Assembly: GCA_028291405.1 (NCBI GenBank)
Contig: JAQGID010000085.1
Coordinates: forward strand, 1 to 64,000
Length of the DNA: 64,000 nt
DNA from: Rhodospirillales bacterium
GTDB lineage: Bacteria; Pseudomonadota; Alphaproteobacteria; ATCC43930; CGMCC-115725
Direction: 5' to 3'
The position numbers were made by a program, and so were the translations under genes. Numbering within the stretch: position 1 is the stretch's first letter; every line of letters begins with the position of its first letter. The notes under the pieces are model-generated. The model ran no database searches. It was not told where the DNA came from and worked only from the letters and a program-made list of their open reading frames with translations. Positions 6,877 through 61,799 of this stretch are shown here, piece after piece.

Positions 6877-7776
6877 TCAATCCGCAATGACTTCAGTTGA
6901 GACGACGTGAGTTGCCGTCCCCTTTGCGCCGGGCGGAAGCGCTTTGAACTCCCTTGCTTTGCCCAATGGCCAAGTATCAGTTTGTGCTTCGTGCAGTGAC
7001 TTGATTGGCAAGTCGATCACCTGGCTGGTTGATAGTTTCGCGCCAGAATGACGGTAGATGATTCGTTTTTCTGGACGTTTGTACGGGGAAACTCCAATGG
7101 ATCCTCCAAAAGATCCAGTGTTACATATGATTATATTGCAATAAATCATGCGGGAGAGTGCTTCGGCCGCGTGATCGAACGTATGAATGTCTTTATTATA
7201 TGAAAGAACGAAAAGGTGATGAATATTAAGCCTATAAGTCGCAACTCGCTCAAGATCCAGAAGGTCGAAGCACACGACAACCGCAAAACGTCCGAAACTG
7301 CCGGCTTCGAAGAGCCAAATCTCAGGTACACTACGGAACTCGTAGCCTAGACCCAAAAGCATCTGCTCTTCTTCGTGCGATGAATATGTTTTCCCGACGT
7401 AGCGGATTGTCGCTTTCGACGAATGGCGGGTCCCCCATCGATTTGGAATTATTACGGCGGCGCGATTTCTAGCTGCGACGGGAGATGAACCGGGGACCGG
7501 ATCAAAATCCAGCCCTCCGATAATGATGCAATTCATCTGCGATGCAATGCGCCGTAACCGCGAAATAAATCCGAGAGGCACGGCTACCTCCGGTAGCAAA
7601 ACGATATCTGGCTTTGGAGCCTCTAAGGCAAGCGAGGCAAGGTGCTGTTGTATTTCCGCTACAGCGCGCTCTTCCTCGATATTCGACATATTAACTCCTG
7701 CCGACCATGCAGCGTCGGAATCGACCGTCGTTTGTATGATTCCTACGCGAAGCCAATCTCGTAATGGCCCACTCAT
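6877..7776 (-). CDS. Nitrilase/carbon-nitrogen hydrolase-fold protein of RT cassette
   Basis: 299 aa; candidate catalytic Glu (LLPEVAVP), Lys (RYVGKTYSS), Cys (VVVCFDLLDLE); ATG overlaps upstream stop (ATGA). Confidence 0.8.
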   Translation of the reverse strand: MSGPLRDWLRVGIIQTTVDSDAAWSAGVNMSNIEEERAVAEIQQHLASLALEAPKPDIVLLPEVAVPLGFISRLRRIASQMNCIIIGGLDFDPVPGSSPVAARNRAAVIIPNRWGTRHSSKATIRYVGKTYSSHEEEQMLLGLGYEFRSVPEIWLFEAGSFGRFAVVVCFDLLDLERVATYRLNIHHLFVLSYNKDIHTFDHAAEALSRMIYCNIIICNTGSFGGSIGVSPYKRPEKRIIYRHSGAKLSTSQVIDLPIKSLHEAQTDTWPLGKAREFKALPPGAKGTATHVVSTEVIAD

Positions 7777-9452
7777 GGGTCGTTATCCATATCCATGAGA
7801 TCCACCGCGGCTCCGACCAACTGAATGACATTCATCGGAATCAACTGACGCGGAGCATGGTCGAGCACGCTGATCTGGCCACTGGCAAGGGTCCTTTGCG
7901 CGTTCACGATAGCTTCAGAAAGCCCTTCGACGTCGAGAATCAGTGGCGGATCGGTCGTCGTATCGTTGATCGAAGTCACGTTTTGGTCCCCAAAAAATGC
8001 CCATGGGTCCATACGCATCACTGCTGTCTCGGCGCTTCGTGGCAATAGTGCGGCTTCGATGATGGCGTGCGAATGTGAAGACAGCGGGATCTCTTCCAGC
8101 GATGCCTTAACAAACCTAGCTGTATCACGTTCTAGGCCTCTGACGTTCCAAGCGGCAGGCAACCGAAAGTCGCGTTTTACCAATCCCAGAAGTAGCAATC
8201 CGCACCCTCTTAGTCGCGCTCTCCAGCGGGCATGAGTGTCATTGTCATCAATGGTCGTCGGGGGCTGACGGCGAAAATCCTGAATTGGAAAGCGGGTCAG
8301 GGAAATTCCGGGCTTTGCAGAGCTGGCAACGTGTTTCCACGTCTCCCATGTCCAGCGCGCCTCGACGAAAATGCCAGGAGCTGGAGCTTCAGAAAGCCAC
8401 GCCCTCGGGAGTAGAACATTTGCGGGATGGAGTTCATCAAGGACCGTGATTTCGAGACCGGGAAATTCCCGGATGCGCTTCAGCAACTGCCGCAAGATTT
8501 CTAAAGCGGTCCATTCGCTCGCACGGGGATCATAGGGATCGCGCGCCACCAGGGAATTGAGCCAATCGACCCAATCAAGAGCTGTTAAACGATCTTTCTT
8601 GCTTGCGATTTCTTTTTGGTGACGGCGAAGACGACGTACGACCAAAGGCGGTCTTGAGAATACAGTGAGATCGCTGGGTTGGGTCGACGTCTGTTGATCC
8701 AAGAGCCAACCTGCGTCCGTTTTGCTGAGGGTCCGAAGGCCAGCACGGGCAAGATAATCGGCTTGCCTTATTGGTAGGCTTCGTGGTCCTTTGCGCAAGC
8801 TCTCCCAGTCAAGCCGGACTGTCGGATCGTGTTGAGGCGCAGTAACTTTCCAGATCGGCCCAGGATCGATTCCATCATGGCGAAGCACACCGTCTAACCA
8901 GTGCGTCCAAACCCCAATGGGGAATCCTGTGCTCTTGTTCCAGATGCTTGAAGCGGCAGTCAAAGAAGGAGGCCGTACTTGGACCGCGAGAGCCTTAAGA
9001 CCTTCGTGCCCATGAGCGCCGTTGCGGTTGAGCGTATCCACCGCGCAGGCTAAAGCGGCATAGAAACAAGCTCGCGCCGACATTGAGGCAACGTCTTGCG
9101 TGGGGCCTTTTAACATTGAAGCTAATGTCGAATGGATCTCTTTATCGCCTATACTATTTAGATAGAAATTTGCCGCGGTGCGTTGTCGCTGGAGGATTCG
9201 TTGATTGTTTACGTCAAATGCTGCTGTCGCCATGTGGCGAGCAATTGTTTGTAGTGCTAAGGGTCGGAGATATTCCGCTAAAGGACTCTGGTCATCGTCG
9301 AAATGCTCGAAAATCCATCTGAGGACGCGGCAGGTTCCGTTGTGTCCGGTTATGCGACAATAGTCCAATACGCGAATGAATAATCTTGACTTGTCCGGGT
9401 GGTCGCAAAACGCTTGGAAAATTAACTTGAAATAATGATCTATTCTTTTTTT
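7773..9452 (-). CDS. C-terminal region of the reverse transcriptase protein (different frame from N-terminal part)
   Basis: Frame of the 7773-9779 ORF; protein-like from KKRIDHYFKLIFQAFCDHPDKSRLFIRVLDYCRITGHNG onward, low-quality sequence before it; continuous with the RT after a 1-nt shift at the A8 run. Confidence 0.65.
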   Translation of the reverse strand, partial: KKRIDHYFKLIFQAFCDHPDKSRLFIRVLDYCRITGHNGTCRVLRWIFEHFDDDQSPLAEYLRPLALQTIARHMATAAFDVNNQRILQRQRTAANFYLNSIGDKEIHSTLASMLKGPTQDVASMSARACFYAALACAVDTLNRNGAHGHEGLKALAVQVRPPSLTAASSIWNKSTGFPIGVWTHWLDGVLRHDGIDPGPIWKVTAPQHDPTVRLDWESLRKGPRSLPIRQADYLARAGLRTLSKTDAGWLLDQQTSTQPSDLTVFSRPPLVVRRLRRHQKEIASKKDRLTALDWVDWLNSLVARDPYDPRASEWTALEILRQLLKRIREFPGLEITVLDELHPANVLLPRAWLSEAPAPGIFVEARWTWETWKHVASSAKPGISLTRFPIQDFRRQPPTTIDDNDTHARWRARLRGCGLLLLGLVKRDFRLPAAWNVRGLERDTARFVKASLEEIPLSSHSHAIIEAALLPRSAETAVMRMDPWAFFGDQNVTSINDTTTDPPLILDVEGLSEAIVNAQRTLASGQISVLDHAPRQLIPMNVIQLVGAAVDLMDMDNDP

Positions 9453-10980
9453 TGTATCTACTAAAGTCAATGTCTCGCCAAATTTTGAATGATTGTTCGG
9501 CAATCTCTCTTTTTTCTTTCTCGGCGGGACCTTCATTTTCAGATTTTTGTGAGTTAAGCCGAGCGAATTCCCTCCAGGCATCAAGTAGGTCAATAGAGGG
9601 GCTAAACGCAACTGGAACAAGAGTTGCGATGCGACCCGCTGCGAATGCCGCCCGTGTGTCTGACCGGATTTCGCGATCGGGCAAATCGGCCAAAAGCAAC
9701 CATTCGAGTTCCCGAAGTCGTTGATCTCTGGAATCCTCTGAGAGGATGTCGAAAGCGGTACCGGCCAATTCCGAGACAAGCGCGAGAGTCTTAGTCATTA
9801 ATTTGGAGGGATGGCTACCGTCGAGTTTGGATAGAGTCTTCGCCTTAGAGACTATCTCTTCGTCTGCATCAATTTTAAAGGCTTGGGCCATCTCTTCGGG
9901 ATCAAATTTGTCCGGTGAGATATTTGGCCCTACGCCTAATCGGCGAAGCGCCTTTTCGTAACGTCTTATCCACGCGCGAAGCTCATCGAAATCGTACGCG
10001 AGTATCGCGTGATCGTCGACAAATCGAAAATGGGCGATACGGTGGTTTCGCCGCAATCGTTGATCCGTCCAGAGATCGAGCCGGAGCATCGCAACGTTAG
10101 ACAGGAACCCCGCCACCATTAGGCCGGTCGGAATTCCGTCGAAGGGGCCCGCCCCCGTTTCCGGCTGCACGATTGGATTTCCGAGTAGGCGACTCCCGAC
10201 GTTCCCAACTTTAAAATCAAGCATCCGATCGATAAGTTCCCGGAGCCACATGTCATCGTTGAAATCGGCTAAGTACTTTTGAAAACCGTTTGTAATAGAA
10301 TGCCTGGAAATCTGTGGGTAAAATCTCTCTAGATCGATCGAAGCATAGTAGAGAATTGACGTGGTTACCGGACGCCAGTGCGCACGGTCTAGATAGAAAG
10401 GCTTGTCGGAATGATTTAGCGCGCTCTTTTCCGATGCGTCAAGTTGCTCTTCGTCTTCGAGAGCATGAACCATTAGCCGTGCAGAAAGAGATAAGTGCCG
10501 GCGGAAAAGTGGCCAACTGTGCTTAAATCTGCGATAGAGGTTTCCGCTCGAATGGCGGTAAGGTCCGATTTCTAAATGAGAAAGCCCTTCGTCTTTCTCT
10601 TCAAACCAAGCCGCCTTATAGAGCCTATGTCCATAGCTCCATGCTGGCATCCTTGAATCAAGGGTCGGACCTATAACATTGACGAGAGCGATCCATGCGA
10701 CTTGATCTCTTACCGAGACGTGGAAGCTTTGACGAAGTCGCGGGTTCCCGTATTTGTCTGGCTTCTTAGGCTGGGGAATAAGAGCCAAGCGGTGCAAGCA
10801 ATAGGAAAGATCTAAGAAGTCGTGCGCAATTGACCTTAGATTGCGTTCGAGGTCCAGTTCAAAGGCGGCGACTTCGCCAAAATTAACGGAACCATCGGCG
10901 CTTTCGTATAATCGGCGTGCCTTCTGCCATGCCCATGTTAGATTTTCGCGGCCTGCAACAAGTTCGCGAATTCTGCTCAC
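9292..10980 (-). CDS. Reverse transcriptase (UG/Abi-type, RNA-directed DNA polymerase), N-terminal part; genuine frame probably ends near 9446-9453
   Basis: 562-aa ORF, GTG start overlapping primase TGA (GTGA); motif A YASIDLERFYPQI, motif B GIPTGLMVAGFLSN, motif C HFRFVDDHAIL, motif D LGVGPNISPDK. Confidence 0.9.
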   Translation of the reverse strand: MSRIRELVAGRENLTWAWQKARRLYESADGSVNFGEVAAFELDLERNLRSIAHDFLDLSYCLHRLALIPQPKKPDKYGNPRLRQSFHVSVRDQVAWIALVNVIGPTLDSRMPAWSYGHRLYKAAWFEEKDEGLSHLEIGPYRHSSGNLYRRFKHSWPLFRRHLSLSARLMVHALEDEEQLDASEKSALNHSDKPFYLDRAHWRPVTTSILYYASIDLERFYPQISRHSITNGFQKYLADFNDDMWLRELIDRMLDFKVGNVGSRLLGNPIVQPETGAGPFDGIPTGLMVAGFLSNVAMLRLDLWTDQRLRRNHRIAHFRFVDDHAILAYDFDELRAWIRRYEKALRRLGVGPNISPDKFDPEEMAQAFKIDADEEIVSKAKTLSKLDGSHPSKLMTKTLALVSELAGTAFDILSEDSRDQRLRELEWLLLADLPDREIRSDTRAAFAAGRIATLVPVAFSPSIDLLDAWREFARLNSQKSENEGPAEKEKREIAEQSFKIWRDIDFSRYKKKNRSLFQVNFPSVLRPPGQVKIIHSRIGLLSHNRTQRNLPRPQMDFRAFRR

Positions 10981-12026
10981 TTTGACTTCCGAGTATGACG
11001 GAGATATTCATTGAGATCCTTACCTACTGGTAGGGATTTTGTAACGCTCTGGATACCTGCGCGGCGAAAGTCCGTCGTAAGCCTAGTCCGCATATCCATC
11101 CCTGCCTTATCGTTATCGGGAACTATGTACACGGTCCTGCCCCGGAGGGCTCGAAAAACATTCGTCGGGAAGTGCGAACCCGCACCGGGAAGCCCGATAG
11201 CTGCTAGGTCTAGTTCGTGAGCCGACAGCACATCTGTAGCTCCTTCGCAGATATATATCTCCCGCGATCCGGCTAGGGCTTCGAGGTTGTAAATTGGCTT
11301 TTCAATCCCGCGGGGTGCCATCCAGCGTGGCCCTTCATAACCGGGTAATATCCTCGTCTGGAGGTACACAATCCGCCCCCGCTCGATGAAGGGGAAGAGT
11401 ACGCTCGGACTAGGGAAGATCGTCGACATCCCACGTGCGTCCCGCTTGAGTAGCCCGGCTTGCCTTACGGCCGCTAGTCCGAACCGCCGAATAATCTGTT
11501 GAATGGCTGCCTTGGTATCGCCCAAGAAGCCGAGGCGGAAGTGAGACATGGTTGCTCGACTAAAGCCTCTGTCCGACAGATACATCACGGCTTCTTCGCG
11601 CAAAGGATGATCAGCCAGAAGAGCTTCGTAGATCTCCGGATTTGCGACGAACTCTGACGCCGGGGCAGAAACAACCGACTCGGTGATTAATGGGGCGCTG
11701 ACCTTTGCTGCAAACTTAGAGTGACTGATTCGCGGAGCTCCGAGATTGTAGCTTTGTCGAAGCCAAAGAATGGCGTCCCGCATCGACCATCTTTGAATCA
11801 GCGCAACCAAATCTATTGAATCCCCAGCGCGTCCACAGCCGTAACACCGCCATCTATTGGTCTTTCTGTTGAAGCAGAACGACGGATTGATGTCAGGATG
11901 ATCTGGAAAGGGGCATCGGATACTTCCCCGCCCGCTGCGCGTTATGCCAATACGGGACGCGACATCCAAAATGCTCAGAGCCCTAATCTCGTCGAGGGCG
12001 CTGACCCGGCGAATGGCGGTGGTCAT
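10977..12026 (-). CDS. CHC2 zinc-finger / TOPRIM primase-like protein
   Basis: Start at ATG 12026 (MTTAIRRVSALDEIRALSILDVA); CPFPDHPDINPSFCFNRKTNRWRCYGCGRAGDSIDL zinc finger; TOPRIM motifs CEGATDVLSA and VPDNDKAG. Confidence 0.85.
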   Translation of the reverse strand: MTTAIRRVSALDEIRALSILDVASRIGITRSGRGSIRCPFPDHPDINPSFCFNRKTNRWRCYGCGRAGDSIDLVALIQRWSMRDAILWLRQSYNLGAPRISHSKFAAKVSAPLITESVVSAPASEFVANPEIYEALLADHPLREEAVMYLSDRGFSRATMSHFRLGFLGDTKAAIQQIIRRFGLAAVRQAGLLKRDARGMSTIFPSPSVLFPFIERGRIVYLQTRILPGYEGPRWMAPRGIEKPIYNLEALAGSREIYICEGATDVLSAHELDLAAIGLPGAGSHFPTNVFRALRGRTVYIVPDNDKAGMDMRTRLTTDFRRAGIQSVTKSLPVGKDLNEYLRHTRKSK

Positions 12027-12034
12027 TTTGCGAC

Positions 12035-12925
12035 CTAAACTTGCCGTCGGAATCGGGTCTTTGCCGTCATGCGAAATAAATTTGGCGTCAGCGCTTTGCC
12101 ATTTTTTATAGCCTCTAAAGATGCGAGTTCCTTGTCCACGTCGTCGATCGGAATGTCTTTCCACCACGCTCGAGGATAACCATTCTGCCCGTCATTCCAG
12201 CGATAACCTCGGCGCTTTAACTCAATGCGCGAATCATAGGGAGCTCCGTCAGCGAACACTCTCATGTCGATTCGACGTGCATTTTGTAGAAGCGCTGATA
12301 ACACGGGAGTATTTGAGCGCGGAAGAGTGAGCGAGAGAATATGTACAACTGCGTTACAGTCATCAATTGCGCGGTGTGGATCGTAAAATCTGCCAAAACT
12401 ATGCGCGATGTACTCGAGCCTAGTTCCAGTTATACCCTCTGATCGCCACGGAATTTCGGTTGCCGAGCAAGCCCATGGTAGATCAATGAACGCGGGGACT
12501 AATGCTTCGCAAAATGGTCGGTCAAAGGCAGCATTATGCGCGATAATGAGGGTAGCGTCGGCTAAAAAGGTTTCGACGTCATTACCTGAGATTCGCTGGC
12601 CTCGAACATCGTGAGCATGAATTCCGGTCAGATCCGAAATGATTTTAGGGATTGCGACGTTTGGTTGATTGAAGGACTGAAAGGTTGAGATAATTTGGCC
12701 AACGTGCCCTTCGCGATCAAAGAGGAATTTGATCATCCCGAGTTCAATGACTTCATCGATCTCTACGTCTAGGCCGGTCGTCTCAACGTCGACGGCTACT
12801 CCAACCAAGGCATCGGCAACGAGAGCGTCGAATGAGGATGCCTTCGGAAATCGTTTCAATACTCGGTAGTCGCCAGTGTTCTCTAACAGAAAACGTGCGG
12901 CTTCGATTGCGACGTCCTCAGTCAC
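12035..12925 (-). CDS. DEDDh 3'-5' exonuclease (DnaQ/Pol III epsilon-like)
   Basis: Exo motifs VDVETTGLD, AHNAAFDRPF and HRAIDDCNA; C-terminal GYRWNDGQNGYPRAWW; GTG start. Confidence 0.85.
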   Translation of the reverse strand: MTEDVAIEAARFLLENTGDYRVLKRFPKASSFDALVADALVGVAVDVETTGLDVEIDEVIELGMIKFLFDREGHVGQIISTFQSFNQPNVAIPKIISDLTGIHAHDVRGQRISGNDVETFLADATLIIAHNAAFDRPFCEALVPAFIDLPWACSATEIPWRSEGITGTRLEYIAHSFGRFYDPHRAIDDCNAVVHILSLTLPRSNTPVLSALLQNARRIDMRVFADGAPYDSRIELKRRGYRWNDGQNGYPRAWWKDIPIDDVDKELASLEAIKNGKALTPNLFRMTAKTRFRRQV

Positions 12926-13280
12926 GCTGGTTTCTCATACTGCAATTCTTACTCCGGCATCGGTCGCGTAAGTGTACGAGCAAACGACAGCAATTGCACC
13001 TGGGTCGCGATTAATTTTTGTCCAGTGAGTCGCTTTCGCAAGACGATGATCCACGCCGAGGGGCGCCTATAAACGGGCCACGCTCGCGACATTGAACCGG
13101 TTAAGTTCCGCCACCGGCGACCCCGGGCCTCTACAACCTTCTGCGACAGTTAGCGAAGCGGAATTTTCTTGACACATCATGTCCGATATGGAACAAGTAT
13201 GGCGCTTTTGGTTCTTTGACATCGTCAAATCCGACCCGGCGCGCCTCGCCACCAAAATCGAACACTCGCGCCTGCATTTT

Positions 13281-61010: not shown

Positions 61011-61676
61011 TCAAGCCTGCCGTAGCGGGACAGCCCGGTTTCGTGGCGCCGCCTGGGCTTCGCGCCGATCATCGGCGCCCGCAAACCGGCGATATGACCA
61101 GATCTGCGTCGGCAGAAAGTTGAGCCAAATGCGCTCGACCTCCCGCCCGGCGATCCCGAGACTCCGGCACGGTAGCGGCGATTCCAGCGCGTTGGTCAGC
61201 TGCACCAGGCGCCCCTCGGCGCCGAGCAGCGCGAAGGATTGCTCGACGATGTCGCGTTGCGCGGCGAGGGGAAACCATTTGATCGGCAAGCTCGAGGCGA
61301 TCTGCGACAGCTGCGTGATGCTGCGCGCGGCGAGCAGGGAAGCGAGGTCGGTCGCATCGCCCTCGACGACGGTAATGCCGGGGAAGCGGCGGCGCAGCAC
61401 CTCGGCGAGGGCCGGCTCCCGCTCGATGACGACGAGCCGCTCCGCCGGACAGCCGTGCCGCAGCAGGCCGGCGGTGATGCTGCCGGTCCCCGCCCCGAGC
61501 TCGAGGACGTGACCCGGCCGCGCGAGGTCCATTTGCCGCGCCATGGCGTCGGCGACGAGCCGGCCGCTCGGCACGGCGGCGGCGATGTCGATCGGCCGGC
61601 GCAGCCACAGTCCGAAGAAGAGCCCCAAATCCGACAGCACGTTGCGCTCCGCGAAGCCGTTCGAGGCAGTGACCAT
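61011..61676 (-). CDS. Class I SAM-dependent methyltransferase (phospholipid N-methyltransferase-like)
   Basis: VLELGAGTGSITAGLLRHG SAM motif I. Confidence 0.8.
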   Translation of the reverse strand: MVTASNGFAERNVLSDLGLFFGLWLRRPIDIAAAVPSGRLVADAMARQMDLARPGHVLELGAGTGSITAGLLRHGCPAERLVVIEREPALAEVLRRRFPGITVVEGDATDLASLLAARSITQLSQIASSLPIKWFPLAAQRDIVEQSFALLGAEGRLVQLTNALESPLPCRSLGIAGREVERIWLNFLPTQIWSYRRFAGADDRREAQAAPRNRAVPLRQA

Positions 61677-61799
61677 AAGACATCAACGTGTCAGTTTTTT
61701 TTGCTACCGCGCGTGCCGGCCGCCTCTAGTAGGCAGCCGCGAAAGTGTCATCAACATCTGGTAGGTCATCGGAAGCTCTGACAACGATCGGACCTCGCC

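What the first reader, a model, noticed from the sequence alone, without database searches (positions are those of the whole stretch)
9440..9460. Reading-frame switch at an A8 run inside the RT gene
Seen: on the minus strand GAC TTT AGT AGA TAC AAA AAA AAG AAT ... (A8 = 9453-9446). The RT frame is protein-like up to here, then becomes NRSLFQVNFPSVLRPPGQVK... and stops at 9292. The frame of the 7773-9779 ORF is poor before this point and protein-like after it (KKRIDHYFKLIFQAFCDHPDKSRLFIRVLDYCRITG). Losing one A or a +1 shift (or gaining two A / -2) gives one ~1068-aa protein. A -1 shift instead reaches GAA TAG and stops at once. Inference: transcriptional slippage or recoding could set the ratio of short RT (~562 aa) to long RT; alternatives are phase-variable inactivation, a pseudogene, or a homopolymer sequencing error.
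Basis: partly seen in the sequence, partly recalled or inferred. Interest (0 to 1): 0.85.

Follow-up and report, generated by a model that had tools for sequence, protein, structure and literature searches.

The report
Private frameshift in a UG6 reverse transcriptase
A probable anti-phage reverse-transcriptase gene is knocked out of frame at a run of eight A's in this one genome, while every complete relative found is one uninterrupted gene without that run, so this is most likely an ordinary recent mutation (or an assembly error), not a built-in switch.

Summary
In detail: on the minus strand an A8 run (9453-9446) separates two reading frames that both look like protein. The gene is a UG6 defence-associated reverse transcriptase (PADLOC RT_UG6: 514 bits for the first half, 417 for the second) in an exonuclease-primase-RT-nitrilase operon. 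A scan of 85,488 species genomes gave 16 UG6 relatives. Fourteen complete ones and one cut by a contig end encode the protein in a single frame; one is a decayed copy. None of the single-frame ones has an A run at this site, which lies in a hypervariable linker. There is no stimulatory RNA structure and no separate start signal for the second half. A -1 shift, or one extra A, stops at once, so the common slippage direction does not help. Downstream residues are fully conserved (18 of 18 family-invariant), so the break is very recent or an artefact. Sampling 268 kb of the same genome found no other clear frameshift, which argues mildly against a poor assembly, but A8 runs are too rare there to calibrate. 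Verdict: a private homopolymer length change in an otherwise intact system, probably a real mutation, possibly leaky through slippage. Programmed recoding is not supported. Low interest.

The parts
9446..9453 (-). A8 run at which the coding frame changes
   Evidence: private to this genome
9292..10980 (-). UG6 RT, first frame: intact RT domain (SIDL motif A, GIPTGLMVAGF, FVDD), then about 52 out-of-frame residues and a stop
   Evidence: RT_UG6 2-394, E 2.6e-154; GTG start overlaps the primase TGA stop
7773..9452 (-). UG6 RT, second frame: C-terminal all-helical domain; no start codon with a Shine-Dalgarno-like sequence near its beginning
   Evidence: (RT_UG6 404-920, E 3.7e-125)
6877..7776 (-). 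RT-associated nitrilase (E-K-C residues conserved); ATGA overlap with the RT stop
   Evidence: (RTasNitrilase, E 4.5e-101)
10977..12026 (-). DnaG-like primase (CHC2 zinc finger and Toprim), RT-associated; likely ATG start at 12026
   Evidence: (RTasDnaG-like, E 5.5e-93)
12035..12925 (-). DEDDh-type 3'-5' exonuclease (RNase_T), first gene of the operon
   Evidence: same neighbour in L023, L024, L027

Best explanation
This is a UG6-type defence-associated reverse transcriptase gene in which the length of one A run differs by one base (modulo three) from what would keep the gene in frame. The change is private to this genome. Most likely it is a real, recent replication-slippage mutation. Shown: two frames, one gene, single-frame relatives, intact neighbours and intact downstream sequence. 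Inferred: most translation ends at 9292, giving an RT domain with a junk tail of about 52 residues and no C-terminal helical domain; loss of the ATGA coupling lowers nitrilase synthesis; so the system is off or strongly reduced. A small amount of full-length protein may still be made by accidental slippage on the A8 run.
For: Of 16 UG6 relatives, 14 complete ones and one cut by a contig end are single-frame, with no A run at the site; the 14 complete ones all match RT_UG6, and L027 does so in one piece, 110-1049. The downstream half keeps 18/18 residues invariant in the 14 complete relatives and 95/99 invariant in five alphaproteobacterial ones. Primase and nitrilase motifs are intact. No RNA structure follows the run (z +1.77). 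No start signal near the beginning of the second half. In E. coli, single-base transcript deletions in homopolymers are very rare and homopolymer errors are mostly insertions (PMC5574713), while here one inserted A stops at once. Another relative, L035, is a decayed copy, so loss of this gene occurs in nature. No other clear frameshift in 268 kb of the same genome.
Against: No reads were available, so a consensus error cannot be excluded. No second strain of the species with the gene was found, so the mutation's age and frequency are unknown. The lack of any further decay fits an error as well as it fits a recent mutation.
Confidence: 0.62

Rival explanations
1. Sequencing or assembly error in the homopolymer; the real gene is in frame and the system is intact.
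For: Everything else in the operon is intact and conserved. The change sits exactly in the longest A run of the gene. The genome is a 461-contig draft.
Against: No other clear frameshift in 268 kb, including 34 G/C runs of 6 and 25 A/T runs of 6 or more. This suggests a good consensus, but only two A8/T8 runs were sampled, and the frame model used cannot see breaks in low-GC genes such as this one.
Confidence: 0.28
2. Programmed or selected transcriptional slippage, or ribosomal frameshifting, makes a short and a long RT in a set ratio, as in Citrobacter rodentium tssM1.
For: Precedents: tssM1 (A11, 20-25% frameshifting, both forms needed; PMC4256274). Indels in an A8 run of M.HaeIII were bypassed in E. 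coli to give active enzyme (PMC3812077). The second half is fully conserved.
Against: No A run or frame switch at this site in any of 15 relatives that read in one frame. No structure. The A AAA AAG heptamer is in phase for -1, but -1 leads to a stop at once. The tssM1 precedent uses a longer run and inserts bases, whereas here one base must be lost or two gained.
Confidence: 0.06
3. Phase variation: the A run changes length in the population and switches the system on and off.
For: The run is the longest A run of the gene, and its length decides between full-length and truncated product.
Against: The run is short for a phase-variable tract and absent from relatives, so there is no conserved contingency locus. 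UG6 genes L025 and L027 carry 8-base A or T runs elsewhere and stay in frame.
Confidence: 0.04

Closest known systems
UG6 RT family of the UG/Abi (DRT) reverse transcriptases, PADLOC RT_UG6 with RTasDnaG-like and RTasNitrilase
   Same: The two halves together match RT_UG6 nearly end to end; the associated primase and nitrilase are adjacent.
   Different: The RT gene is split between two frames at an A8 run; the relatives are single-frame. Three close relatives share the added exonuclease gene.
DRT1 (UG1), solved as 9yfd; a DRT1 structure and mechanism are described in PMC13275509
   Same: RT, alpha-helical C-terminal region and nitrilase as parts; 46.7 bits of RT-domain similarity to 9yfd_A by profile.
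   Different: DRT1 carries the nitrilase in the same polypeptide; here it is a separate gene with an extra primase and exonuclease. DRT1's filament mechanism was not tested for UG6.
Transcriptional frameshifting in Citrobacter rodentium tssM1 (PMC4256274)
   Same: A gene interrupted at a poly-A tract, with the second half preserved.
   Different: There the tract is A11 and slippage inserts bases and is demonstrated. Here the tract is A8, the direction is the unfavourable one, and nothing is shown.

Membership tests
UG6 reverse transcriptase (DRT) | Match to the RT_UG6 profile over its length | tested here: met
   514 bits (2-394) and 417 bits (404-920), best hit by far, but in two frames
UG6 reverse transcriptase (DRT) | RT catalytic motifs (motif A Asp, xxDD) | tested here: met
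   SIDLERFYP and FRFVDD present; the aspartates are invariant in the alignments
UG6 reverse transcriptase (DRT) | Associated DnaG-like primase and nitrilase | tested here: met
   RTasDnaG-like and RTasNitrilase hits adjacent to the RT; same order in relatives
UG6 reverse transcriptase (DRT) | Single continuous open reading frame (seen in all intact relatives, not part of the family's formal definition) | tested here: not met
   Frame break at 9453-9446; the 15 single-frame relatives have none
UG6 reverse transcriptase (DRT) | Anti-phage activity | not testable with these tools
   Needs an infection assay; no paper found here reports one for UG6
Programmed frameshift or slippage gene | Slippery site and frame change conserved in relatives | tested here: not met
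   No A run and no frame change in any single-frame relative
Programmed frameshift or slippage gene | Shift direction available at the site leads to the downstream frame | tested here: inconclusive
   -1 or one extra A stops at once; only +1, -2, loss of one A or gain of two reaches it
Programmed frameshift or slippage gene | Stimulatory mRNA structure (ribosomal type) | tested here: not met
   The downstream 79 nt fold less well than shuffles, z +1.77
Programmed frameshift or slippage gene | Both protein forms made in cells | not testable with these tools
   Needs blot, mass spectrometry or RNA sequencing

The most novel reading that the evidence does not exclude
A newly arisen, lineage-specific slippage site in a DRT gene: the A8 run lets RNA polymerase make a few percent of full-length RT alongside a truncated RT domain, damping a potentially costly defence system while keeping it available.
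Probability: 0.06. Interest if true: 0.55.

Novelty: new member of a known kind. Interest (0 to 1): 0.17.

Why it matters
If the break is real, it is an example of a defence operon switched off (or turned down) by a single homopolymer change while all other parts stay intact, the state expected soon after loss. The locus also adds a member to the little-studied UG6 family and shows an exonuclease-primase-RT-nitrilase operon shared by four alphaproteobacterial loci. If slippage proved functional it would be, as far as I know, the first such control reported for a DRT.

Tried and rejected
Close-relative scans with the single protein found nothing in genome contigs or viral contigs; an alignment with DRT1-like RTs was needed to reach UG6. 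Plasmid and phage records hold only remote RTs. Samples of the class and phylum and the 43 genomes of the order hold no other UG6 at strong E-values, so no sister strain could be compared. A viral-contig pattern search across the junction found nothing. Whole-genome download was not available, so 268 kb were sampled instead. One apparent frame switch there (L116, 18586) looks like a normal gene junction with a stop, in a TRAP-like transporter region. A separate second gene was rejected for lack of a start signal and because relatives are fused. Ribosomal -1 frameshifting as a way to the long product was rejected because it stops at once. The empty-site test in the only same-genus genome failed because both flanking genes are missing there.

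Full report
On the minus strand the RT frame starts with GTG at 10980 and reads ...GAC TTT AGT AGA TAC AAA AAA AAG AAT..., with eight A's at 9453-9446, and stops at 9292. A second open frame on the same strand runs on to 7773. Both frames belong to one gene: the first matches positions 2-394 of the PADLOC RT_UG6 profile (E 2.6e-154) and the second positions 404-920 (E 3.7e-125) of its 925 positions. Read as one protein the product is about 1068 residues.

The gene lies in a four-gene operon on the minus strand: a DEDDh-type exonuclease (12925-12035), a DnaG-like primase with CHC2 zinc finger and Toprim domains (12026-10977), the UG6 RT, and a nitrilase (7776-6877). The genes are tightly joined: the primase TGA overlaps the RT GTG start, and the RT stop overlaps the nitrilase start as ATGA. 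The block has about 46-56% G+C between flanks of about 64-73%, consistent with horizontal acquisition. Catalytic residues of the nitrilase (Glu, Lys, Cys) and of the primase Toprim domain are conserved with relatives.

Relatives were the main test. Direct searches found none, so the window RT was aligned with five DRT1-like RTs and the shared motifs were used to scan 85,488 species genomes. This returned 16 UG6 relatives, L023-L038, from alphaproteobacteria, Burkholderiales, Prevotella and an unclassified MAG. Fourteen have a complete single-frame gene of 1045-1083 residues. L037 is cut by its contig end but open throughout. L035 (Bradyrhizobium erythrophlei) is a decayed copy lacking its 5' part and shifted in frame. 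All 14 complete ones match RT_UG6, and L027 matches it in one continuous stretch.

At the place of the A run the relatives have ordinary mixed codons, for example CGT CGC CGC CTC ACG CAC TAT TTC in L027 and TAC CGC AAG TTG ACT GCC CAC TAT TTC in L024. None has an A run there and none changes frame. The site lies in a hypervariable linker (0-30% identity between the window and five close relatives). In the AlphaFold model of L027 (mean pLDDT 81.6) it falls within a long helix (482-520) just after the RT and thumb region, ahead of an all-helical C-terminal domain of about 500 residues. A truncated product would therefore keep the RT domain and lose that domain. Two relatives, L025 and L027, have 8-base A or T runs elsewhere in the gene and stay in frame.

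The downstream half shows no decay. It keeps all 18 residues that are invariant in the 14 complete relatives and 95 of 99 that are invariant in the five alphaproteobacterial ones, no worse than intact relatives by the same yardstick. This means a very recent event, an error, or continued use. It does not separate these.

Programmed recoding is poorly supported. The site is not conserved. The 79 bases downstream fold less well than shuffles (z +1.77). The run contains the A AAA AAG heptamer in phase for a -1 shift, but -1, like insertion of one A, leads to GAA TAG. The second frame is reached only by +1 or -2, or by losing one A or gaining two. Transcription in E. coli rarely deletes single bases in homopolymers; its homopolymer errors are mostly single-base insertions (PMC5574713). 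On the other hand, indels in an A8 run of a methyltransferase gene were bypassed in E. coli to give active protein, including changes in either direction (PMC3812077), and C. rodentium tssM1 is rescued at an A11 run with 20-25% frameshifting (PMC4256274). Some full-length product is therefore plausible even from a mere mutation.

Mutation or error cannot be decided without reads. The draft has 461 contigs. In 268 kb of it, a codon-usage frame scan found about 50 direct same-strand frame switches; all but one had the stop and start of a normal gene junction, and the remaining one also looks like a normal junction. This argues against a consensus full of indels, but the scan cannot see low-GC genes such as this one, and only two A8/T8 runs fell in the sample. 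I weigh real mutation over error at roughly two to one; that weighting is judgement.

As to family, the gene is a UG6 RT by profile, motifs and neighbours. The nearest solved relative by sequence profile is DRT1 (9yfd, 46.7 bits); in DRT1, RT, helical-repeat and nitrilase parts are one polypeptide and DNA synthesis controls the nitrilase (PMC13275509). A fold search found group II intron-like, DGR, AbiK and other DRT reverse transcriptases, with no match covering the whole model. Whether UG6 works like DRT1 was not tested. Defence by UG6 was not found in the open-access papers searched; that it defends against phage is inference from the family.

Noticed in passing
window 12035-12925; L023:4072-4992, L024:4027-4989, L027:4033-4977: A DEDDh exonuclease gene precedes the primase in the window and in the three closest UG6 loci, but an RNase_T gene was not seen among the upstream frames tested in L025 and L026: a possible fourth component of an alphaproteobacterial UG6 subtype.
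   Followed up: partly
L035:5983-8192: The UG6 locus of Bradyrhizobium erythrophlei GAS478 is decayed: the RT lacks its 5' part and is shifted in frame near residue 318.
   Followed up: partly
window 6877-13200: The operon is a low-GC block (about 46-56%) in a genome of about 66.5% G+C, between a cyclase-like gene and the urease cluster; UreG and the cyclase-like gene have no match in the only same-genus genome held.
   Followed up: partly
window 61695-61702: The only other A8/T8 run of the window lies near the start of a minus-strand open frame (61072-61725), just outside the predicted coding part.
   Followed up: no
L123:4631-4954: A viral contig (IMGVR_UViG_3300003472_000038) encodes a stretch 33% identical to the N-terminal part of UG6 RTs.
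   Followed up: no
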